Virus record (IMG/VR): IMGVR_UViG_3300028800_000005
Coordinates: 48,018-112,017 of that record
Strand: one strand, 5' to 3'
Origin: a virus
DNA: 64,000 nt
Each line of letters starts with the position of its first letter. Within the stretch, counting starts at the first letter, position 1. Below the pieces are notes generated by a model. That model had not been told where the DNA came from. It saw nothing but the letters and a program-made list of their open reading frames with translations, and made no database searches. Below are positions 27,907-58,520 of this stretch, piece by piece. The position numbers were made by a program, and so were the translations under genes.

Positions 27907-28167
27907 ATGGGACGTCCAGTCAGCAGGAGCTGTAACCGCGAGCTTGCGCAGGGCCTTACCGATGGCTCCTACAAGCAGATCGTGAAGGACCGTGGCGGCA
28001 TAGTCGAGTCGTCGACTTACGAGGCGCGCAAGAACCTCAGCGTGCCGCTTTACGGCATCGTGGAGAAGGAAGAGAAGGAACTCGGGGACGCGGTCGGCCC
28101 GGTTCGCACGCCGTACGTCGTCGACAGCCCGAAGCCCGGACTCCTGGTGACCGACCAGGACCGGTAA
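27907..28167 (+). CDS. Hypothetical protein
   Basis: 86 residues after TAGGAGTTCAC. Mixed alpha/beta, charged middle (EKEEKELGD). Ends an operon; a promoter follows at once. Confidence 0.68.
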   Translation: MGRPVSRSCNRELAQGLTDGSYKQIVKDRGGIVESSTYEARKNLSVPLYGIVEKEEKELGDAVGPVRTPYVVDSPKPGLLVTDQDR

Positions 28168-28169
28168 TT

Positions 28170-28199
28170 TTGACATCGGAGAACTAAACGGACTAGCCT
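28170..28199 (+). promoter_or_regulatory. Sigma70-like promoter
   Basis: Perfect -35 TTGACA (28170-28175), 18-bp spacer, TAGCCT (28194-28199). Preceded by GGTAATTT, a short AT-rich context seen at several other promoters here. Confidence 0.65.
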
Positions 28200-28227
28200 G
28201 AAGTCTAGGCATCGAATGGAGCACCAC

Positions 28228-28380
28228 ATGATCATCGGCACGGACGTGCACGGGGACGCAGTAGAACTCCCCGTAGAGCTTAGGGACGAGGGCATCCTCG
28301 ACTTCGGCTCCGAGCACGCGCTTTGCTGGCACTGGGCCGATGACTTTGTGCTCCGCATTTCTACTGAGGAGCATGAATGA
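28228..28380 (+). CDS. Small hypothetical protein (50 aa)
   Basis: ATG 28228 follows GGAGCACC and the promoter; ATGA overlap with the next gene. Acidic, Trp-containing (ALCWHWADDF). Function unknown. Confidence 0.66.
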   Translation: MIIGTDVHGDAVELPVELRDEGILDFGSEHALCWHWADDFVLRISTEEHE

Positions 28381-28721
28381 CGATCGACCGCAAGGTGCAG
28401 TATGGAAGCACGGTCACGGCTGTTACCGGACTGGCTACCTGGCTGCTCACGACATACGCATTCCACGGGTCCATGCCGACTGCGGTTGCCACCGCGCTCC
28501 CTGTCCTGATCGCCTCGGTTATCGGCTGGATTACCTCTTACATGACCAAGCAGGCACCGAAGGACGTCGTCCGCGCGGCGGACAAGCTCGAATCGGATGC
28601 CACCGTGCACCAGATGTCGCTGGCTCTCCTGGCCACGCACACCCCGAACAAGGTCCAGGCACGCGCTTTCCCAAAGGCATACCCGCCAGTCGGCCCGCAA
28701 GCCCCATTCGGGGGACAGTAA
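28377..28721 (+). CDS. Two-span membrane protein, holin-like
   Basis: 114 residues. Two hydrophobic segments (about 9-29 and 33-55) separated by a short turn, then a charged helix and Pro-rich tail. Topology and size suit class II holins and similar small phage membrane proteins. It is 20 kb from the endolysin, which weakens a holin call. Confidence 0.55.
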   Translation: MTIDRKVQYGSTVTAVTGLATWLLTTYAFHGSMPTAVATALPVLIASVIGWITSYMTKQAPKDVVRAADKLESDATVHQMSLALLATHTPNKVQARAFPKAYPPVGPQAPFGGQ

Positions 28722-29284
28722 TGGCTGGTAAGCGGGTCCGGATTCTCGTATGTCCCCGGTGTGAGACGGTAGAACCCATTGAATGGTGCGCCACCGCTCC
28801 CGGCTCGAATCCTGAGTGCGGGCACGCCCAGTGCGCTGACCTCCTGAACTTCAGGGTAATGCCGCACACTGCCGACCTGGCCGAAGGCAGGGTCTACCAC
28901 AGTAACCTGCTGCTGACTGACGTCGCGTCCGACGACTGGAACCGGCTGTCGACGCGAAAGAACATCCTGAAGAACTTCACCGCCCCGGGTGACGCCACGC
29001 CTTACGGCGCGGAACTCTACGCGATCAAGGAGAACTACCAGGAATCCGCTATGCAGTGCTGGAAGCAGCATAACCGCACGACAGACTGCGGTGAATGGCG
29101 GCACTCTTCAAAGCGCCTGGTTGACCAGCGTGAGGAGACAAAGGATCTCCGTCGTGAGCTAAAACTGGAGACGCGCTCGAAGCACCGGCCGACCATGACC
29201 TACCTCTGTGACTTCTGCCCGATGCGGAGCATCAAGGAGACTAAGGTCGACGCAGAGAAGTACGGATTCCAGAGTCCGTACTGA
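28721..29284 (+). CDS. Hypothetical protein with two cysteine clusters
   Basis: 187 residues from ATG 28721. N-terminal CPRCETVEPIEWC and C-terminal CDFCPM make probable zinc sites; the middle is charged and helical. May bind nucleic acid; function unknown. Confidence 0.7.
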   Translation: MAGKRVRILVCPRCETVEPIEWCATAPGSNPECGHAQCADLLNFRVMPHTADLAEGRVYHSNLLLTDVASDDWNRLSTRKNILKNFTAPGDATPYGAELYAIKENYQESAMQCWKQHNRTTDCGEWRHSSKRLVDQREETKDLRRELKLETRSKHRPTMTYLCDFCPMRSIKETKVDAEKYGFQSPY

Positions 29285-29844
29285 TGATCATTACCTGCGG
29301 CATGTGCCCGGCGTCTTTCGAGCGAACTTTTTATCGCCGGAAGTACTGTAGTGATGCGTGCGCAGCAGCGGCCATTCGCAGGAGAGATCGACTCCGGTAC
29401 CAAAATCCTCCACGCCGGGCGGATTGTAACGCACGCGCCGCCGCGTGGAAGGGCGCTCACCCAGAGACGACGAAGGCGCATATGCACTCAAGGCATTTGC
29501 TTCGCCGGTACAACCTATCGGTAGAGCAGTACCTAAAGATGCTTGATGACCAGGGTGGGGTTTGTTACACCTGTCATCGAACCGAGAACGGAGTGCATTA
29601 CAAACAACTCTCGGTGGACCACGATCACAACTGCTGCCCCGGATCTAGGTCGTGTGGTAAGTGTATCCGCAAGCTACTGTGTCATCAGTGCAATAGCATA
29701 CTTGGTATGTTGGATGAAGATCCAGTGGTGCTCCAGTGTATTGCGGATCGTCTTGACACATTCTTCGGACTCCCAGGTAGTGTGTTCACATCAATGGCCA
29801 ATTATGTTCAAGAATATTCAGTAACCCCTACTAGGAGGAACTAG
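29284..29844 (+). CDS. Endonuclease VII-like HNH nuclease, atypical base composition
   Basis: 186 residues. An N-terminal zinc knuckle (CGMCP ... YCSDAC) is followed by LKMLDDQGGVCYTCH, LSVDHDHNCC and CHQCNSILGML, the endonuclease VII core. Codon use is clearly more AT-rich than neighbours from about 29300 to 29830, a sign of recent arrival; HNH genes of this kind often move as free-standing homing nucleases. Confidence 0.8.
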   Translation: MIITCGMCPASFERTFYRRKYCSDACAAAAIRRRDRLRYQNPPRRADCNARAAAWKGAHPETTKAHMHSRHLLRRYNLSVEQYLKMLDDQGGVCYTCHRTENGVHYKQLSVDHDHNCCPGSRSCGKCIRKLLCHQCNSILGMLDEDPVVLQCIADRLDTFFGLPGSVFTSMANYVQEYSVTPTRRN

Positions 29845-30320
29845 TGCTGTTTACCGAGATCGCACTGGCGATCGTCGCCGCTGCATTCCTTTTCATCGAC
29901 GCCCTGTACATTCGGGAGCGCAAGTGGCGTCGTTACACGGAGTACGTCCTGCGCGAGGAGGCCAAGCATCACAACGACATGATGTCGGCCCACCTTGACC
30001 TTATCACGCGGTACGAGCGAGTCCAGCACGGGTACGACCAGGGTGTCCTGGAGGGAATGCGGCAGGCGTACGTGAACGTCCGCGCTACACTGGCCGACGA
30101 ACTCTTTATCACGGGCGGGACAGACGGGGCGAAGCTCCGTGCGTTCGTCCTTCCCTTGCTGGAGAACCTCGGAACTCACGAGACCAAGATCCTGGACGAG
30201 ATGAAGGGGAACACGAAGGCGCGCGAGGCATTCGAGAAGCACGCGGGGAACACCGAGCCAATCAACATGTTCCCGGGCAATAACAAGCCGCAGATAGCAC
30301 AACCAGTGGAGGATAACTGA
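29844..30320 (+). CDS. Membrane-anchored hypothetical protein
   Basis: 158 residues from GTG 29844 after AGGAGGAAC. One N-terminal membrane span (about 4-24), then a basic patch and long helices on the cytosolic side. Function unknown. Confidence 0.7.
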   Translation: MLFTEIALAIVAAAFLFIDALYIRERKWRRYTEYVLREEAKHHNDMMSAHLDLITRYERVQHGYDQGVLEGMRQAYVNVRATLADELFITGGTDGAKLRAFVLPLLENLGTHETKILDEMKGNTKAREAFEKHAGNTEPINMFPGNNKPQIAQPVEDN

Positions 30321-30321
30321 C

Positions 30322-30714
30322 ATGGACATTCCCGAACTCGGACACTCGGCAGCTCGCGCTCGCCAGGAGTCCCCGAAGGCAATTCCCGACGAGGACGACA
30401 TGAGTCCGCTGTCCCCGCTCCCGGACGTCATTCACGCTGACACGGCGTTCCTCGTCTACAAGACCCCAGACGGTCAGGTTATCCTGACGGCGGACCTGAA
30501 CACTCCGGTGTCAGTCCGTCGCGGGCCGCTGAACCACGATATCGTCGGGATGTCACACTGCGTCCTTGAGGACATCCGGCTGATGGGTTCCGCCCCGGCA
30601 ATTGCCCAAACGGTCGTGAACGCGGTTAAGCTGGAGCAGCAGCAGCAGATGGAGCAGATGCAGCAGGCCCAGGTTCTCCAGCAGATCCAGAAGCAGAAGC
30701 AGGGGCACCTGTAA
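30322..30714 (+). CDS. Hypothetical protein with Gln/Met-rich tail
   Basis: 130 residues. A beta-rich middle (FLVYKTPDGQVILTADL) and a C-terminal coiled-coil-like Gln/Met tract (QQQQMEQMQQAQVLQQIQKQ). Function unknown. Confidence 0.7.
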   Translation: MDIPELGHSAARARQESPKAIPDEDDMSPLSPLPDVIHADTAFLVYKTPDGQVILTADLNTPVSVRRGPLNHDIVGMSHCVLEDIRLMGSAPAIAQTVVNAVKLEQQQQMEQMQQAQVLQQIQKQKQGHL

Positions 30715-30875
30715 TGACCAGTGAAGAGATGCACCTGGATAACGCACTCGCGCGACTGCAAAAGGCGCATGTGTACGACGTCAGCGCCGAGCTGACCTAC
30801 GGGCAGGCATACCAGCGGCTAGTCCAAATGGGCCTCCGTCCACAGATCCGACGCAAGTACCGAGGGACTAAGTAA
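30714..30875 (+). CDS. Small basic hypothetical protein (53 aa)
   Basis: TAATG-coupled on both sides. Helical, with basic end (QIRRKYRGTK). Function unknown. Confidence 0.65.
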   Translation: MTSEEMHLDNALARLQKAHVYDVSAELTYGQAYQRLVQMGLRPQIRRKYRGTK

Positions 30876-37551: not shown

Positions 37552-37715
37552 CTGAGGATCGTGACCAGGCGGCCCTGACCCTGCTGAAGATGATGTCCGA
37601 GCTGAACTTCGACCAGATAGCGTTCCTCGTCGGTTACATGACTATCAAGGACATCGACCTCGCAGCCAGGGCAATGACAGCACTCCAGTTCACCGACGTC
37701 GGGCAGGTCAAATGA
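37548..37715 (+). CDS. Small hypothetical protein (55 aa)
   Basis: GTG 37548, ATGA-type coupling on both sides. Helical, Leu/Met-rich. Function unknown. Confidence 0.65.
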   Translation: MTEDRDQAALTLLKMMSELNFDQIAFLVGYMTIKDIDLAARAMTALQFTDVGQVK

Positions 37716-38086
37716 GCGCACAAGAGAATTTGAATCCTCAGCAGTTCTATCATGGTTCTAACCAGGAGTTCAAGCCAGGTGACATGCTGACTCCTGCGGG
37801 CGGTAAAGCCCACGCTGACTCCTGGGATAACAAGGATTACTCGCCGGGAGAGTACGTCCACACGACGCTTGACCCAGGGACGGCACATCTTGTCGCGGGG
37901 CGAAAGAACGATTACGAAGGGCTAGGTCACGTCTACACGGTAGAGCATACCGGCCCGGTAGAAGAGGACAAGTCGATGAACGCCGACATGCAGTCCGCCG
38001 GAGCGAGGAACTTCCGCACCAAGAGCCCTGTACGTGTCACCGGGGAAGATCATGACTGGTGGGAACGCCAGCAGAGGGGCGTGTAA
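37712..38086 (+). CDS. Arr-like mono-ADP-ribosyltransferase 1, tagged
   Basis: 124 residues, close to Arr enzymes (about 140). After the 12-residue block comes YHG (His14), GDMLTPAG, the EYVHTTLD strand (central Tyr), GHVYTVEHTGPVEED (the Asp/Glu region) and FRTKSPVRV: the order and motifs of rifampicin ADP-ribosyltransferase (H-Y-D class). It would move ADP-ribose from NAD+ to a target. Whether the target is rifampicin-like, host RNA polymerase, nucleic acid or another protein cannot be told. Confidence 0.8.
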   Translation: MSAQENLNPQQFYHGSNQEFKPGDMLTPAGGKAHADSWDNKDYSPGEYVHTTLDPGTAHLVAGRKNDYEGLGHVYTVEHTGPVEEDKSMNADMQSAGARNFRTKSPVRVTGEDHDWWERQQRGV

Positions 38087-38364
38087 TGGCAGCCACAGAT
38101 AACCTGAATCCCCACCAGTTCTACCACGGGTCGGACCATAAGTTCGGCCGAGGGGCAATGGTGAAGCCAGGGCATGCCCCGCTGAATTCACCGTCCCCTG
38201 AGGAGCACGCTTACTTCGCGCGGACGCCGGAAGAGGCAGAGGGATACGGAAGGTACGTCCATGCGGTAAACCCGACAGGGGACTACGAGGACGACCCTAA
38301 CGCACAGGGGGCACTGCGCTCACGTGATCCCCTGCGCGTCCGGTATACCCACTCGACGTCCTAA
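38086..38364 (+). CDS. Arr-like mono-ADP-ribosyltransferase 2, tagged
   Basis: 92 residues from ATG 38086, a minimal version. Block MAATDNLNPHQF, then YHG (His14), EHAYFARTPEEAEGYG, YVHAVNPTGDYEDDPN and RSRDPLRVRY. The DDPN before the RS segment is the best match among the copies to the Arr Asp motif. TAATG-coupled to copy 1. Confidence 0.8.
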   Translation: MAATDNLNPHQFYHGSDHKFGRGAMVKPGHAPLNSPSPEEHAYFARTPEEAEGYGRYVHAVNPTGDYEDDPNAQGALRSRDPLRVRYTHSTS

Positions 38365-38377
38365 ATGAATTCGGGAG
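38361..38377. repeat. 17-bp direct repeat, left copy
   Basis: CTAAATGAATTCGGGAG, identical to 38705-38721; the two flank the third ADP-ribosyltransferase gene. Shortened members of the same family follow in the non-coding region. Confidence 0.8.
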
Positions 38378-38381
38378 TGTA

Positions 38382-38702
38382 ATGGCAGCGCAAGATAACC
38401 TGAATAAGAAGCAGTTCTACCACGGTACTAGCGCTGCCCTGAAGCCTGGCGATTACCTGTCTCCCAAGGGCGCTAATGAGTTCGGCAGGCATGAGACGGA
38501 GAGCGGGAGAAGCCACGTCTACGCAACACTCGATGAGGACACAGCGTGGGGGTACGCCATAGACCATGCAGGGTCCGTCGACCGGGCTCACGTCTACCAG
38601 GTTCAGCCAACGGGGAAGACAGAGCCCGACCCGAATGCCGGTGAGTACCCGGCTATAAGGACACGCGCTCGCATGAAGGTCACACGGGAACTGGCCTACT
38701 AG
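38382..38702 (+). CDS. Arr-like mono-ADP-ribosyltransferase 3, tagged
   Basis: 106 residues. Block MAAQDNLNKKQF, YHGT, GDYLSPKG, HVYATLDEDTAWGYA, HVYQVQPTGKTEPDPN. The gene is flanked by a perfect 17-bp direct repeat (38361-38377 and 38705-38721), so it may have arrived or been duplicated as a unit. Confidence 0.8.
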   Translation: MAAQDNLNKKQFYHGTSAALKPGDYLSPKGANEFGRHETESGRSHVYATLDEDTAWGYAIDHAGSVDRAHVYQVQPTGKTEPDPNAGEYPAIRTRARMKVTRELAY

Positions 38703-42863: not shown

Positions 42864-42897
42864 AGGGCCCCCCGGGTAATTTTCCCGGAGGGGCCCT
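42864..42897 (+). terminator. GC-rich hairpin abutting a promoter
   Basis: AGGGCCCCCCGGG pairs with CCCGGAGGGGCCCT around TAATTTT. The T pair at its end is already the start of the next -35. Nearly the same hairpin recurs at 43385-43424. Confidence 0.7.
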
Positions 42898-42926
42898 TGA
42901 CTGTCTGCGACGGGGGATGATACGGT
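42897..42926 (+). promoter_or_regulatory. Sigma70-like promoter of the exported-protein cassette
   Basis: TTGACT (42897-42902), 18-bp spacer, TACGGT (42921-42926), beginning on the last base of the terminator hairpin. Confidence 0.6.
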
Positions 42927-42974: not shown

Positions 42975-43367
42975 ATGCGAAAGGTGATTCACGGCCTGGC
43001 CCTCGCCGTGGCCACTGCGTCCGTCGCGCTGGCCACTGCTTGCGCCGGGAATAAGCCCCCGCCGACCGCTAAGAGCGTCCTTACCGGGGACGGTTACAGC
43101 GTTCTGGTGAATGAGTCCCCCAAGGTCATTCACGACAGCTTCGGTGAGGCCGCCCCGTACATCGCCCCTAACGGGGTAGCCGCCGGGGAGAGGGGAAGCA
43201 CCCTGGAGCTTGTCATCGTCGCTGACACCAGCGCGGACGCGCAGAATGTCATCTATCCGGCCCTGAGCGGGTCCCTCAAGGGGGCAGGTGTCTCCTGCTC
43301 TCTTGACGGGGTGGTAACCCGCTGCACGGGGCCCGTTACCGCGAACTGGGTAAACGGGGGCCAGTAG
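42975..43367 (+). CDS. Secreted lipoprotein
   Basis: 130 residues. Basic start, hydrophobic core and a lipobox LATAC with the lipidation Cys at about 23, so a membrane-anchored extracytoplasmic lipoprotein. The mature part has a beta-rich pattern and two further Cys (SCSLDGVVTRC) that could form a disulfide. Phage lipoproteins often block superinfection; here it opens the exported cassette. Confidence 0.8.
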   Translation: MRKVIHGLALAVATASVALATACAGNKPPPTAKSVLTGDGYSVLVNESPKVIHDSFGEAAPYIAPNGVAAGERGSTLELVIVADTSADAQNVIYPALSGSLKGAGVSCSLDGVVTRCTGPVTANWVNGGQ

Positions 43368-43384: not shown

Positions 43385-43429
43385 ACAGGGCCCCCCGGGT
43401 TTGACGTACCCGGAGGGGCCCTGTAGTGT
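43385..43429 (+). promoter_or_regulatory. Terminator-like hairpin with promoter inside its loop
   Basis: CAGGGCCCCCCGGG and CCCGGAGGGGCCCTG form the stem; the loop contains TTGACG (43401-43406), and TAGTGT (43424-43429) follows after 17 bp. The same DNA can terminate the lipoprotein transcript and start the next one. Confidence 0.6.
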
Positions 43430-43470: not shown

Positions 43471-44094
43471 ATGATCGCCCTGACACCGATTCCGGTACTG
43501 CTACTGGCCTCACTTAGTCCGTTCCATATGACCGCACCGCCAGCCGCGCACCACGCACCACCCCCGGCCGCGACCGCCAGGGCTCACCACGCCCCGGCAC
43601 CGCACAAGGCGCACAAGGCCCGCGCCAAGGAAACCCCGTACCACGTCTGGGACACCACGGTCCCGTCGAACGTCCCGGCCGGAAAGCGCGCCGCGTTCTA
43701 CGCGAACGGCGCTTACGCCGCGACCGTCTCACAGACCGCCGGGCACACCCCGGTCCTGTGGATCGACGTCTTCGGGTCGAACCCGAACGCTAACGTCGTC
43801 GATGTAGAGCCCGGTGACGCGACCGCGTCGCAGGCCGCCGCATGGGCACACGCCCGCGTCGACCTCCACCCCGGCCAGACCGCGATTATCTACGTCGCTA
43901 AGTGCCACTGGCAGGACGTCAAGAACGCCGTCTCTGCCCTACCGAAGCACGTTCAGGATAACGTCCGCTACTGGATCACGGACCCGACCGGCGTGGACCA
44001 TGTCGTCCCCGGCTCGCAGGCGACCCAGTGGCACTGGGACGCGAACGTGGACATCTCAACTGTCCTCCCGTCACTGACGAAGGCAGGTGCCTGA
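43471..44094 (+). CDS. Exported Rv2525c/GH25-like glycosidase-like protein
   Basis: 207 residues from ATG 43471 (AGGAG 9 bases upstream; GTG 43453 is possible). Hydrophobic signal segment, an Ala/His/Pro-rich linker (to about 55), then a domain with WDTTVPSNVPAG, VLWIDVF, VVDVEPGDATASQAA and TAIIYVAKCHW, matching the glycoside-hydrolase-like TIM-barrel of Rv2525c and some actinophage lysins. DVEPGD holds the likely acidic site. Probably acts on cell-wall glycans. Confidence 0.75.
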   Translation: MIALTPIPVLLLASLSPFHMTAPPAAHHAPPPAATARAHHAPAPHKAHKARAKETPYHVWDTTVPSNVPAGKRAAFYANGAYAATVSQTAGHTPVLWIDVFGSNPNANVVDVEPGDATASQAAAWAHARVDLHPGQTAIIYVAKCHWQDVKNAVSALPKHVQDNVRYWITDPTGVDHVVPGSQATQWHWDANVDISTVLPSLTKAGA

Positions 44095-44651
44095 TGATTA
44101 TCGCCCCGATGCTGATGATCGCCGTCACGGCGAACAGCCACCACCATCCCGTCGCCTCAGCCCACCGGCACCACCACAGTGCCCCTGTACGGCCCGCAGC
44201 GCGCCACCACAGGCACCACAAGGCCCAGGTGACCATACCGCTGCCAACCGGCCCGATGCAGAACGCAGGGAGCATCTACCGGGGCCTGAGGGGCATGGGC
44301 CTCAGCCCCGCCGCTGCGGCCGGTGTCGAAGGGAACCTCTACCAGGAGTCCCACGGGGACCCGCACAGCTACAACCCGGTCGGCGGGGGACTGTTCGGGC
44401 TGACGAACCAGAACGGCGGGTCGCCGTCCGGCGGATCGCTCCAGAGTGAGCTTCAGAAGCTCCACGTCTACATCACCACGAACGGCTCCGTCCAGGACGT
44501 GAACGCGCACGCGACCGGCAGCACCCAGACGCAAAAGGCCGCGAACGTCGCGAACGATTTCGTCCAGCGGTATGAGCGCGCGGGAATTCCCGCCAGCGGG
44601 ACCCGCATGCAGGCCGCTAAGCACTTCGCCCAGGCGCAGGGGGGATCATGA
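44094..44651 (+). CDS. Exported tail-lysozyme-like muralytic enzyme
   Basis: 185 residues from ATG 44094. A short hydrophobic start is followed by a His-rich linker (HHHPVASAHRHHHSAP). Then GMGLSPAAAAGVEGNLYQES with the catalytic Glu, GGGLFGLTNQNGG and a helical end match the phage tail lysozyme (Phage_lysozyme2) domain. Likely cuts the peptidoglycan glycan strand. Confidence 0.78.
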   Translation: MIIAPMLMIAVTANSHHHPVASAHRHHHSAPVRPAARHHRHHKAQVTIPLPTGPMQNAGSIYRGLRGMGLSPAAAAGVEGNLYQESHGDPHSYNPVGGGLFGLTNQNGGSPSGGSLQSELQKLHVYITTNGSVQDVNAHATGSTQTQKAANVANDFVQRYERAGIPASGTRMQAAKHFAQAQGGS

Positions 44652-45436
44652 CACGCAAGATCATCGCGGCGACCGTCGCTGCCGCCAGCGTTGCCACGGG
44701 AGTGGCCCTGGCCGTCCCGGTGAGCGCGTCTGTGCCACCGCCGGTCACGGTCAGCGGTAACGGCTCCACCCAGACGCACACCAGCCCCCAGTTCGCTCTC
44801 CACGCGGGCGGGGCGGACGTCACCACCAGGGCTGGCAGTGTCAAGTACACCGCGAGCCACCACGGGCCAGTCTCCTGGCAGGACCCGTACCTGACGACAG
44901 GGTATAACGGAGGCAAGCGGGCGGGGACCGCGCTGCCGGTCCAGCTCGGCAAGCAGGGGAACCCGGTCGCGTCGGTCAGCTACACGACGACCCGCGACTT
45001 CTGGGGAGACGTCGGATTTGACATCTGGCTTACCGAGACGCCGAACAAGCACAGCTACGCGCAGATGACGGACGGCGGGCCCGGCACGACGGAGATCATG
45101 ATATGGTTCTCCAGCGTCGGCCTGCCCCTTCCGCGCACGGGCTACTACGCGAACATCGACGGCATGAAGTTCGGCACGATCGTCGGGCTGGCCGCCCAGG
45201 GGCACGCTAAGTCGGGCACCCGGGCCGGGTGGAACAACGTGAACTTCATCCTGGACGCCCACAAGCCCGGCGCGTTCATCCACCACGGCCACCTGGCCCT
45301 GAACCCGTTCCTGGAGTTCGCGGTCAAGAAGGGCTGGGTCAAGCCGCACGATTACATCATGGCGATCAATAACGGCGCAGAACTGACCTACGGCGGAATG
45401 TCGGTCACCGGGTACTCCCTGACCGGGCTGCGATAG
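44648..45436 (+). CDS. Secreted GH12-like beta-glucanase
   Basis: 262 residues. A typical signal peptide ending near VPVSASV, a beta-rich body, then TTEIMIWFS, the signature of glycoside hydrolase family 12 around its nucleophile Glu. PFLEFAVKKGWVKPHDYIMA followed by INNGAELTYGG gives the second acidic site and C-terminal strand of GH12. The family cuts beta-1,4-glucan and xyloglucan. An unexpected activity in a phage lysis-type cassette; it might attack a glucan capsule or biofilm of the host. Confidence 0.78.
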   Translation: MTRKIIAATVAAASVATGVALAVPVSASVPPPVTVSGNGSTQTHTSPQFALHAGGADVTTRAGSVKYTASHHGPVSWQDPYLTTGYNGGKRAGTALPVQLGKQGNPVASVSYTTTRDFWGDVGFDIWLTETPNKHSYAQMTDGGPGTTEIMIWFSSVGLPLPRTGYYANIDGMKFGTIVGLAAQGHAKSGTRAGWNNVNFILDAHKPGAFIHHGHLALNPFLEFAVKKGWVKPHDYIMAINNGAELTYGGMSVTGYSLTGLR

Positions 45437-48021: not shown

Positions 48022-49167
48022 ATGACTCACTCCACGCTAGATTACTCCGGGCAGCCGTTCGCCAGGCCCGAAAAGCCCGCCGCCGGGCTGGCAGGCCGTG
48101 TGACGGCCCGCATCCTGGCCGCCGTGCGCCCCGCCGCAGTCGGTTCGACCCTTCTCGGACAGGATTCCGTCAGCACCTCCGCTATGTCCAGGGGCCTTTC
48201 AGTCTACTGCGGCTACGAGGGCGGGCTGCTCGGGTACGCCAATGGCCGGTACACCACGATGGGTTCGGTCTACGCCTATTTCCCGGGTAAGAAGTACGTC
48301 AGCGTCGGACGGGACGCGATCGACATCGAACCGGGCCTGGCGTCCCCCTCGGCCGCCCCGAATTTCGTCCGGAACGCGAAGCCGACGCACACGACAAAGC
48401 CGGTCGTTTACTGTTCGGCCGGGGACCTTACCACCGTCATCGGGTACCTTAACCGCGCGGGCATCGCGCGCTCGAAGTACTTCATCTGGTCGGCCCACTG
48501 GACCGGTAAGCACATCTGCGGCCCCGGCACCTGTGGCTATCCCCAGGCGGACGCGACCCAGTACGGCTCGAATAACTCGTTCGACAGCGACGTTTTCAGC
48601 GCCGCCATGTTCGGGCCCGTGCCCCCGGCGGCCAATCCGTCCTTCCCGCTGAAGGAAGGGGACGCGGACGTCACTGGCTCCGGCCCGGTGCGGCAGCTAC
48701 AGACCAGGCTGAACACCTGGCAGAAGGCGATCGGGAAGTACGGTGTCCTGAAGGTCGACGGGCAATTCGGCGCGGCGACAAAGGCTGCCGTCGCGGACGC
48801 GCAGTTCCACTTCAGTGAGCGCGGGGTCAAGGCCGGTACCTGTACCAGCGCCCTGTTCAAGAAGCTCAGTGCAGCGCCCCCGGTCACTCCCGCCCCGGCC
48901 CCGAAGCCGGAGACCGACGCGCCCCTGATGGTGACCTCGCAGAAGAACGTCACCGTCGCCTACAGCCTGAAGGTGGACCGCACCATCCCCGCCTACACGG
49001 GCCTGTACGCCACCAAGGTCGAACGTGCGGGCACTACCTGGCGCACGGACCATAACAGCGCGGAGGCTGTCTTCATCCTCCACGTGCCCCTTCCCGGGAC
49101 GTACACGGTCACTACCGGTGCCCGGGGATACAAGAACACCGTCCAGACGGTGATCGTCACCACCTGA
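48022..49167 (+). CDS. Modular endolysin
   Basis: 381 residues. Residues ~50-215 form a glycoside-hydrolase-like/GH25-type domain (LSVYCGYEGG, DAIDIEPGLASP, FIWSAHWTGKHIC). A peptidoglycan-binding helical module follows (LKEGDADVTGSGPVRQLQTR ... VDGQFGAATKAAVADAQ), then a Pro-rich linker and an Ig-like beta domain at the end. No signal peptide, so release needs a holin-type partner; the 25-residue membrane peptide next door is a candidate. Confidence 0.85.
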   Translation: MTHSTLDYSGQPFARPEKPAAGLAGRVTARILAAVRPAAVGSTLLGQDSVSTSAMSRGLSVYCGYEGGLLGYANGRYTTMGSVYAYFPGKKYVSVGRDAIDIEPGLASPSAAPNFVRNAKPTHTTKPVVYCSAGDLTTVIGYLNRAGIARSKYFIWSAHWTGKHICGPGTCGYPQADATQYGSNNSFDSDVFSAAMFGPVPPAANPSFPLKEGDADVTGSGPVRQLQTRLNTWQKAIGKYGVLKVDGQFGAATKAAVADAQFHFSERGVKAGTCTSALFKKLSAAPPVTPAPAPKPETDAPLMVTSQKNVTVAYSLKVDRTIPAYTGLYATKVERAGTTWRTDHNSAEAVFILHVPLPGTYTVTTGARGYKNTVQTVIVTT

Positions 49168-51198: not shown

Positions 51199-51393
51199 AT
51201 GCCCGCCTACGAGTTCAAGTCCGAGGAAACCGGTAAGGTCCGGGAGCTGTGGCTGACCTTCACGGACCTTGAGTCAATGGACGGCGGGTGGACCGAGTAC
51301 GACCACGAGACCGGAGAGCTAGAGCATTACCGCCGGGTATACAACGCCCCGGCAGTTCATTTCCGGGGCAGTGGCTGGGCGTGCAAGTCATGA
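51199..51393 (+). CDS. FmdB-like protein without its zinc cysteines
   Basis: 64 residues from ATG 51199. MPAYEFKSEETGKV and the end YNAPAVHFRGSGWACKS match the frame of FmdB-type zinc ribbons, but the C-x2-C pairs are missing. Probably a decayed or repurposed copy. Confidence 0.6.
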   Translation: MPAYEFKSEETGKVRELWLTFTDLESMDGGWTEYDHETGELEHYRRVYNAPAVHFRGSGWACKS

Positions 51394-51692
51394 CCAGGTC
51401 CCAGCTCTCCGACGACATTGCCGTCAAGGTATCCGGGTTCGCTGGCTCATGGAAGTTCGTCGGCGCGTTCATGGGCGGGGCCGGTGCCTGGATGCTGGTG
51501 AACAGCTTCGCCCACTTCGACGGCCAGGACATATACCTGAACCTGATGATCTCGATAGCGACGACGCTACTGGCGACGTTCATCCTCATGAGGGAGAACC
51601 GGCACCGGCAGCACGACATCGAGGTCCGCAGGGAGCACATGGAGATGACCCGGCAGATAAAGATCCTGCTGGAAAGGGAGACTCATGGATAA
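51390..51692 (+). CDS. DUF1003-like membrane protein
   Basis: 100 residues from ATG 51390. WKFVGAFMGGAGAWMLVNS, a short loop with NLMISIATTLLATFILM, then ENRHRQHD match DUF1003: two spans and a cytosolic charged helix. Function unknown. Confidence 0.72.
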   Translation: MTRSQLSDDIAVKVSGFAGSWKFVGAFMGGAGAWMLVNSFAHFDGQDIYLNLMISIATTLLATFILMRENRHRQHDIEVRREHMEMTRQIKILLERETHG

Positions 51693-57632: not shown

Positions 57633-57859
57633 TGGATAACGAGTACGCCGACGCGAAGACGGAGTGGTCGGACTGGAACGCTAATACCGCGTTCAACACC
57701 GGGCTGGCCAAGGCCAAGGGTACACCCGGTATACAGGCCAGGTCACGTAATGCCGAGTTCCAGACGGCAGCGAGCCGCCCGCACATGGAGCCGGGCCGGT
57801 TCACGGACCAGATGCTAGCGCGCGCCTGCCATGCAGGAAAGCAATACGCGGGGGTGTAG
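57632..57859 (+). CDS. Small hypothetical protein
   Basis: 75 residues, Ala/Asn/Trp-containing helix and polar tail. TAATG-coupled to the previous gene. Function unknown. Confidence 0.66.
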   Translation: MDNEYADAKTEWSDWNANTAFNTGLAKAKGTPGIQARSRNAEFQTAASRPHMEPGRFTDQMLARACHAGKQYAGV

Positions 57860-57862
57860 CCT

Positions 57863-58033
57863 GTGCCCTTTAAATCCGAAGCCCAGCGCAAGTTTCTTTA
57901 CGCTAACCAACCTGAAGTTGCCGAGCAGTGGTCCGAGGAAGACAAGAAGAAGCGCAAGGGCCGAAAGGACGAGCACAAGAAGCACCAGCGGGCCAAGCAC
58001 TTCGAGGAGGGCAGTGGCCGTGGCAGCGACTGA
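57863..58033 (+). CDS. Conserved small basic phage protein (56 aa)
   Basis: GTG 57863. PFKSEAQRKFLYANQPEVAE matches a short protein found in many phages (PFKS-AQ-R-F-YA-P-A pattern), with a poly-Lys/Glu tail. Function unknown; overlaps the tagged gene at 58020. Confidence 0.75.
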   Translation: MPFKSEAQRKFLYANQPEVAEQWSEEDKKKRKGRKDEHKKHQRAKHFEEGSGRGSD

Positions 58034-58520
58034 TAACATGAATAAGGTTCAGTTCTACCACGGGAATGCGACCCCTCTGGAAGAGGGTGACGTAATCGAG
58101 CCGGGGCACCGGGCTAACTGGAGTAAAGACCTTACTAAGGACTCGAAGCACCAGTACGCGTTCGCGACGACGAACCTCACGGATGCCGTCCGTTACGCTG
58201 GCCGCGCGGAATACAAGCAGCAGAACCGGAATATGGACCGGGCCTACGAGGAGCATTTCCCCGGCGTCCCTCGCGGCGCGGTAACAATGGGGATGCGCAA
58301 GAAGGCCGGTCTCGAATCCGATGACGCCCTGACGGGAAACGTCTCAGGGCATATCTACAAGGTTGAGCCGGTCGACTCCTCCTCGGTCTCCGTCGACCCG
58401 GAGGACGAGAACAGGAAGCGCGGGAAGGACCCGGATGCTTTCCGGAGCAAGGCAGGCTGGCGGGTTACCGGTAAGGTCCCGTACCAGGAGGCGCGGAAGC
58501 AAGCGGGGTTCAAGTACTAA
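58020..58520 (+). CDS. Arr-like mono-ADP-ribosyltransferase 4, tagged
   Basis: 166 residues from GTG 58020 with GAGGAGG upstream. Block VAATDNMNKVQF, YHG (His14), GDVIEPGH, YAFATTNLTDAVRYAG, HIYKVEPV, then VDPEDE and FRSKAGWRV. An insertion of about 40 residues (YKQQNRNM to the HIYKVEP strand) makes it the longest copy. Gln-type variation at the third motif (DPED) should be checked for activity. Confidence 0.75.
   Translation: MAATDNMNKVQFYHGNATPLEEGDVIEPGHRANWSKDLTKDSKHQYAFATTNLTDAVRYAGRAEYKQQNRNMDRAYEEHFPGVPRGAVTMGMRKKAGLESDDALTGNVSGHIYKVEPVDSSSVSVDPEDENRKRGKDPDAFRSKAGWRVTGKVPYQEARKQAGFKY

What the first reader, a model, noticed from the sequence alone, without database searches (positions are those of the whole stretch)
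44648..45436. Secreted GH12-like glucanase in the exported/lysis cassette
A signal peptide and the GH12 E-I-M-I-W motif with a plausible second acid occur next to two wall-degrading enzymes. GH12 enzymes cut beta-1,4-glucans or xyloglucan, not peptidoglycan. Release from infected cells could clear a cellulose-like extracellular matrix, help spread of progeny, or feed the community.
Basis: partly seen in the sequence, partly recalled or inferred. Interest (0 to 1): 0.72.

Follow-up and report, generated by a model that had tools for sequence, protein, structure and literature searches.

The report
Phage cellulase-like enzyme beside its lysozymes
A large virus of soil actinobacteria, related to known Streptomyces phages, carries an exported cellulase-type (GH12-like) enzyme coupled to its cell-wall-cutting genes, a kind of enzyme found in no other virus searched here; it may strip a cellulose-like coat from the host so that the phage's lysozymes can work.

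Summary
The ORF at 44648-45436 (262 aa) begins with a Sec-type leader and is a real but very divergent GH12 homologue. A profile built only from bacterial GH12 proteins scores it 69 bits (E 5.5e-20), with no hit among 200 shuffles; the PDB hits are GH12; an AlphaFold model (pLDDT 64) best matches GH12 enzymes (TM 0.70 to 1oa4). Glu149 and Glu245 align with the catalytic Glu120/Glu203 of 1oa4, and Asp125 is kept. The N-terminal NNxWG motif, the cysteines and an active-site Trp are lost, and the Pfam cut-off is not reached, so the substrate is open.

The gene overlaps the stop codon of an exported phage-tail-lysozyme gene, which overlaps an exported GH25-like (DxE) gene: three coupled secreted proteins. 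The phage (112 kb, contractile tail) is a distant relative of Streptomyces phage BRock. BRock and LuckySocke lack GH12, and none was found in 50,697 phage genomes or, by motif scans, in 2.9 million IMG/VR contigs.

Best mechanism (inferred): it cuts a beta-1,4-glucan on the host surface, plausibly the CslA/GlxA cellulose-like tip glucan that published work shows shields Streptomyces from lysozyme. Feeding on plant polysaccharide, peptidoglycan cutting and a dead enzyme remain possible.

The parts
44648..45436 (+). Exported, divergent GH12-type glycoside hydrolase (262 aa)
44648..44731 (+). Putative Sec signal peptide (residues 1-28)
   Evidence: inspection and hydropathy; cleavage site not computed
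45020..45022 (+). Asp125 codon (DIW motif; Asp104 of 1oa4)
   Evidence: invariant in 44 sequences
45092..45094 (+). Glu149 codon, predicted nucleophile (Glu120 of 1oa4)
45380..45382 (+). Glu245 codon, predicted acid/base (Glu203 of 1oa4)
44094..44651 (+). Exported phage-tail-lysozyme-type gene; its TGA overlaps the GH12 ATG (ATGA)
   Evidence: Phage_lysozyme2 E 3.3e-11; overlap read
43471..44094 (+). Exported GH25-like (DxE) protein; its TGA overlaps the lysozyme ATG (TGATG)
   Evidence: weak, no direct family match
48022..49167 (+). Endolysin-like protein: GH25-like DxE domain plus PG_binding_1
43385..43424 (+). Strong hairpin just upstream of the three-gene chain
   Evidence: -35.5 kcal/mol, z -4.9
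42975..43367 (+). Putative lipoprotein gene between the two hairpins; link to the cassette uncertain
   Evidence: hydropathy; lipobox-like ATAC by inspection

Best explanation
The gene encodes an exported, divergent GH12-type beta-glucanase made together with the phage's exported lysozymes. It most likely cuts a beta-1,4-linked glucan outside the host's peptidoglycan, plausibly the CslA/GlxA cellulose-like glucan at streptomycete hyphal tips, so that the co-made lysozymes reach the wall and progeny escape. Shown here: homology, retained catalytic residues, overlapping gene order with a lysozyme gene, and kinship to Streptomyces phages. Inferred: enzyme activity, the exact glucan, timing at lysis, and the host.
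For: GH12 profile E 5.5e-20; Glu149/Glu245/Asp125 kept while 24 of 41 near-invariant columns changed; GH12 fold match; stop-start overlaps with a lysozyme gene; leaders on all three proteins; terminase 49% and capsid 67% to Streptomyces phages. Literature: the tip glucan lies outside the peptidoglycan and its loss makes S. coelicolor lysozyme-sensitive (PMC9040799); CslA-GlxA product is cellulose and is cut by a cellulase (PMC11022532).
Against: Host not known; related BRock-type phages manage without GH12. Substrate-binding residues typical of GH12 are lost. The N-terminal part of the model is of low confidence. No expression or timing data. The cluster is not at the syntenic position of the BRock lysis genes.
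Confidence: 0.45

Rival explanations
1. Auxiliary metabolic gene: a secreted glucanase that digests plant cellulose, xyloglucan or mixed-linkage glucan in soil, feeding the infected host or its neighbours.
For: GH12 enzymes of soil actinobacteria do this (family knowledge); soil viruses carry an active chitosanase (PMC9485262).
Against: Coupled to a lysozyme gene rather than to metabolic genes; no close bacterial donor, best identity about 30%; no cellulose-binding domain on the protein.
Confidence: 0.2
2. GH12 fold turned to the cell wall itself: it cuts peptidoglycan or a wall-linked glycan and is simply a third lysin.
For: Lies in a chain of wall enzymes; cleft residues changed; the Streptomyces glucanase CslZ can degrade peptidoglycan (PMC9040799).
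Against: No characterised GH12 acts on peptidoglycan as far as I know; the core catalytic residues are those of glucanases.
Confidence: 0.2
3. A dead enzyme kept as a glycan-binding or structural exported protein.
For: 24 of 41 columns conserved at 97% or more in bacterial GH12 are changed; very long branch.
Against: Both catalytic Glu, the active-site Asp, and the Met and Trp of EIMIW are kept, the opposite of the usual decay of a dead enzyme.
Confidence: 0.1

Closest known systems
Streptomyces GH12 endoglucanases (Cel12A of strain 11AG8, PDB 1oa4; S. lividans CelB2, PDB 1nlr)
   Same: Predicted fold, EIMIW nucleophile motif, acid/base Glu, Asp of DIW, secretion
   Different: About 24-30% identity; NNxWG, four cysteines and the Trp after the acid/base Glu are lost; encoded by a phage, with no binding domain
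Mycobacteriophage LysB (named from own knowledge)
   Same: Would work alike: a lysis-cassette enzyme aimed at a layer outside the peptidoglycan
   Different: LysB is an esterase of the mycolyl-arabinogalactan layer, with no relation in fold or sequence; the present role is inferred
Soil viral GH75 chitosanase V-Csn (PMC9485262)
   Same: Glycan hydrolase of bacterial origin carried by soil phages, distinct from bacterial homologues
   Different: Other family and substrate; regarded as an auxiliary metabolic gene
Lysis genes of Streptomyces phages BRock and LuckySocke
   Same: Two small exported wall enzymes plus an endolysin in the cluster
   Different: Those are NlpC/P60-type, transglycosylase and amidase-type enzymes by inspection, at another genome position and without GH12
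Streptomyces CslZ (PMC9040799)
   Same: Exported glucanase acting at the Streptomyces tip-glucan/peptidoglycan interface
   Different: Host enzyme of an unrelated family (GH6 by own knowledge); builds the coat rather than removing it

Membership tests
Glycoside hydrolase family 12 | Significant sequence similarity to known GH12 proteins | tested here: met
   Bacterial-only profile 69 bits, E 5.5e-20; PDB GH12 E 3.1e-7
Glycoside hydrolase family 12 | Pfam PF01670 gathering score (27 bits) | tested here: not met
   19.8 bits; hence filed as a divergent GH12 homologue, not a standard member
Glycoside hydrolase family 12 | Catalytic Glu pair and the Asp of DIW | tested here: met
   Glu149, Glu245, Asp125
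Glycoside hydrolase family 12 | N-terminal NNxWG substrate-binding motif | tested here: not met
   Present in about 99% of the bacterial set, absent here and in L005
Glycoside hydrolase family 12 | Beta-jelly-roll fold | tested here: met
   Model pLDDT 63.7; top PDB matches GH12, TM 0.70; the alignment held GH12 proteins, so not independent
Glycoside hydrolase family 12 | Retaining hydrolysis of beta-1,4-glucan or xyloglucan | not testable with these tools
   Needs enzyme assays
Phage lysis cassette | Adjacent wall-degrading enzymes in one operon | tested here: met
   Phage_lysozyme2 E 3.3e-11 with a 4-base stop-start overlap
Phage lysis cassette | Same place as the lysis genes of related phages | tested here: not met
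   BRock and LuckySocke lysis genes map to window 28165-30872
Phage lysis cassette | Holin present | tested here: inconclusive
   Only a DUF1003 membrane protein at 51288-51692
Auxiliary metabolic gene taken from the host | Close bacterial homologue | tested here: not met
   Best bacterial relatives 27-34% identical; tree position unresolved, long branch

The most novel reading that the evidence does not exclude
Some actinophages carry a lysis enzyme aimed at the host's cellulose-like surface glucan (a 'LysB for cellulose'): a GH12-derived glucanase that removes the lysozyme-protective coat of hyphal tips during release.
Probability: 0.3. Interest if true: 0.8.

Novelty: new variant of a known kind. 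Interest (0 to 1): 0.6.

Why it matters
How phages break the non-peptidoglycan layers of filamentous actinobacteria is little known. A lysozyme-coupled, exported glucanase gives a ready test: Streptomyces cslA deletion strains, which lack the tip glucan and are lysozyme-sensitive, should make the enzyme dispensable. It also adds a glycoside hydrolase family not found in the other viruses searched here, with unusual substrate-binding residues.

Tried and rejected
Searches for viral relatives of the GH12 protein found none: tblastn in phages with the window protein and with 1oa4 (the hits are chance matches at E 0.9 to RecE-like exonucleases), four pattern scans of IMG/VR, and Foldseek on BFVD. 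The scans rely on short conserved motifs and could miss very divergent copies. Close relatives of the phage (terminase 88-100%, polymerase 89%) are fragments; none of those searched carries GH12, but by genome order they probably do not reach this region. Scans with the neighbouring lysozyme and endolysin genes found no relatives. The tree did not place the gene. A profile of the GH25-like proteins found nothing in the PDB. Promoter and terminator scans were at chance level. Recent transfer of an ordinary Streptomyces cellulase was considered and rejected for lack of any relative above about 34% over most of the protein. The first structure model had pLDDT 58.5; a deeper alignment raised it to 63.7.

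Full report
WHAT IS THERE. The window is part (48018-112017) of a 112,017-base IMG/VR virus record. The ORF 44648-45436 (+) encodes 262 residues. Its third-position GC, 0.90, is that of a real gene in this genome; the overlapping minus-strand ORF lacks the pattern. The first 28 residues have the form of a Sec signal peptide (inspection and hydropathy; no SignalP here).

IS IT GH12. Pfam lists only Glyco_hydro_12 with any weight (E 9.3e-4, 19.8 bits), below the curated cut-off of 27. Better tests agree. phmmer against the PDB gives five GH12 sequences at E 3e-7 to 6e-6 (two bear the depositors' label 'family 6', but names the same entries, 7mkr and 7mks, as the GH12 domain of GuxA). A profile built from 80 bacterial loci without the phage protein gives 69 bits, E 5.5e-20; in the same run 200 shuffles, the reversed protein and all other ORFs of this phage's searched stretches, BRock and LuckySocke gave nothing. 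AlphaFold with 44 sequences gives mean pLDDT 63.7, about 80-90 around the C-terminal catalytic strand but low in the N-terminal 60 residues. Foldseek against the PDB returns GH12 enzymes, best 1oa4 (TM 0.70 and 0.73). The alignment used for the model contained GH12 proteins, so the fold result is supportive, not independent.

ACTIVE SITE. In the phmmer alignment Glu149 of EIMIW falls on Glu120, and Glu245 on Glu203, of 1oa4. These are the nucleophile and the acid/base (family knowledge; PMC7303141 describes the same Glu pair in the GH12 enzyme NopAA). Across 44 sequences the invariant columns are Asp125, Trp127, Glu149, Ile150, Met151, Trp153, Gly243 and Glu245 (numbers shifted by 28 for the leader). 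Of 41 columns conserved at 97% or more in bacterial GH12, 24 are changed: among them the N-terminal Tyr and NNxWG residues, four cysteines, and the Trp after the acid/base Glu. Chemistry kept, binding surface changed: an active enzyme with altered specificity is the natural reading (inference).

NEIGHBOURHOOD. Three genes are chained. The gene starting at ATG 43471 ends in TGATG with the lysozyme ATG at 44094; the lysozyme ends in ATGA with the GH12 ATG at 44648. All three have hydrophobic leaders. The lysozyme matches Phage_lysozyme2 at E 3.3e-11. The 43471 protein has no direct family match; its relatives in actinobacterial genomes are 26-34% identical, one of them shows a weak GH25 match (E 0.018), and two of them share a DxE motif with it and with the N-terminal part of the 48022-49167 protein, which carries PG_binding_1 and weak endolysin matches. 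A hairpin of -35.5 kcal/mol lies just upstream of the chain (43385-43424), with a near copy at 42864-42897.

THE PHAGE. The terminase is 49% identical to Streptomyces phages BRock, GiJojo, LuckySocke, Alone3 and pSt2308, the major capsid protein 67% to LuckySocke, with sheath, tube and baseplate homologues in order. A WhiB gene is present. The host is therefore most likely an actinobacterium, perhaps a streptomycete (inference). BRock and LuckySocke keep an NlpC/P60-type gene, a transglycosylase and an endolysin between neighbours that map to window 28165-30872; that stretch of this phage shows no wall-enzyme family. So the wall enzymes of this phage seem to have been replaced by the 43.4-49.2 kb cluster. 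Neither relative has GH12 (bacterial genomes served as positive controls).

DISTRIBUTION. No GH12 was found in 50,697 phage records, in IMG/VR by four pattern scans, or in BFVD by fold. In bacterial genomes 269 loci encode relatives, the best kept at 24-32% identity; in 395 genomes of one actinobacterial class 15 had a match, all at 29-38%.

MECHANISM. Streptomycetes lay down a cellulose-like beta-1,4-glucan outside the peptidoglycan at hyphal tips; strains without cslA are sensitive to lysozyme, and cslA is in almost all streptomycetes (PMC9040799). CslA-GlxA makes cellulose in vitro, and a cellulase degrades the product (PMC11022532). A phage that couples an exported glucanase to an exported lysozyme fits this coat well. 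The link is mine; no paper found in the library joins the two. Rivals are feeding on plant glucans, direct action on the wall, and a dead binding protein. I put homology with a kept catalytic site at about 0.95, glycosidase activity at about 0.8, a role in lysis or release at about 0.6, and the specific tip-glucan target at about 0.3.

VERDICT. The finding is real and the GH12 call is right as a divergent homologue. The function is unproven. As far as searched here, it is the only GH12-type gene seen in a virus, and it stands in a lysis-type setting.

Noticed in passing
L002:2112-2717 (record 2112-2717, upstream of the terminase gene; outside the window): A 201-aa protein matching Peptidase_A4 (G1/eqolisin-type glutamic peptidase), E 3.6e-12, directly before the terminase gene; unusual for a phage.
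   Followed up: partly
37712-38702 and 57831-58520: Three adjacent short genes and one distant gene match Arr-ms (rifampin ADP-ribosyltransferase family), E 9.9e-13 to 3.9e-5; more likely phage ADP-ribosyltransferases than drug resistance.
   Followed up: no
42864-42897 and 43385-43424: Two near-identical strong hairpins (GGGCCCCCCGGG...CCCGGAGGGGCCC), the only two in the window, bracket the small lipoprotein gene; TTGAC(T/G)-N17/18-TAnnnT promoter-like sequences lie at 42897-42926 and 43401-43429 (by eye).
   Followed up: partly
L004:1470-4352 (outside the window): A 960-aa tail protein with PA14 and a weak CBM5/12 carbohydrate-binding match (20.1 bits, below its cut-off).
   Followed up: no
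28165-30872: Place where BRock-type phages keep their lysis genes; here it holds an endonuclease VII gene and unknowns instead.
   Followed up: partly
51288-51692: DUF1003 membrane protein (E 9.8e-13), a holin candidate downstream of the endolysin-like gene.
   Followed up: no
L003:3430-4970 (outside the window): Two genes among the tail genes look by eye like a polysaccharide pyruvyltransferase and a glycosyltransferase; not tested.
   Followed up: no
L087-L091, L109-L111: Fragments of very close relatives (terminase 88-100%, polymerase 89%) come from several IMG/VR metagenome samples, so this phage lineage recurs.
   Followed up: partly
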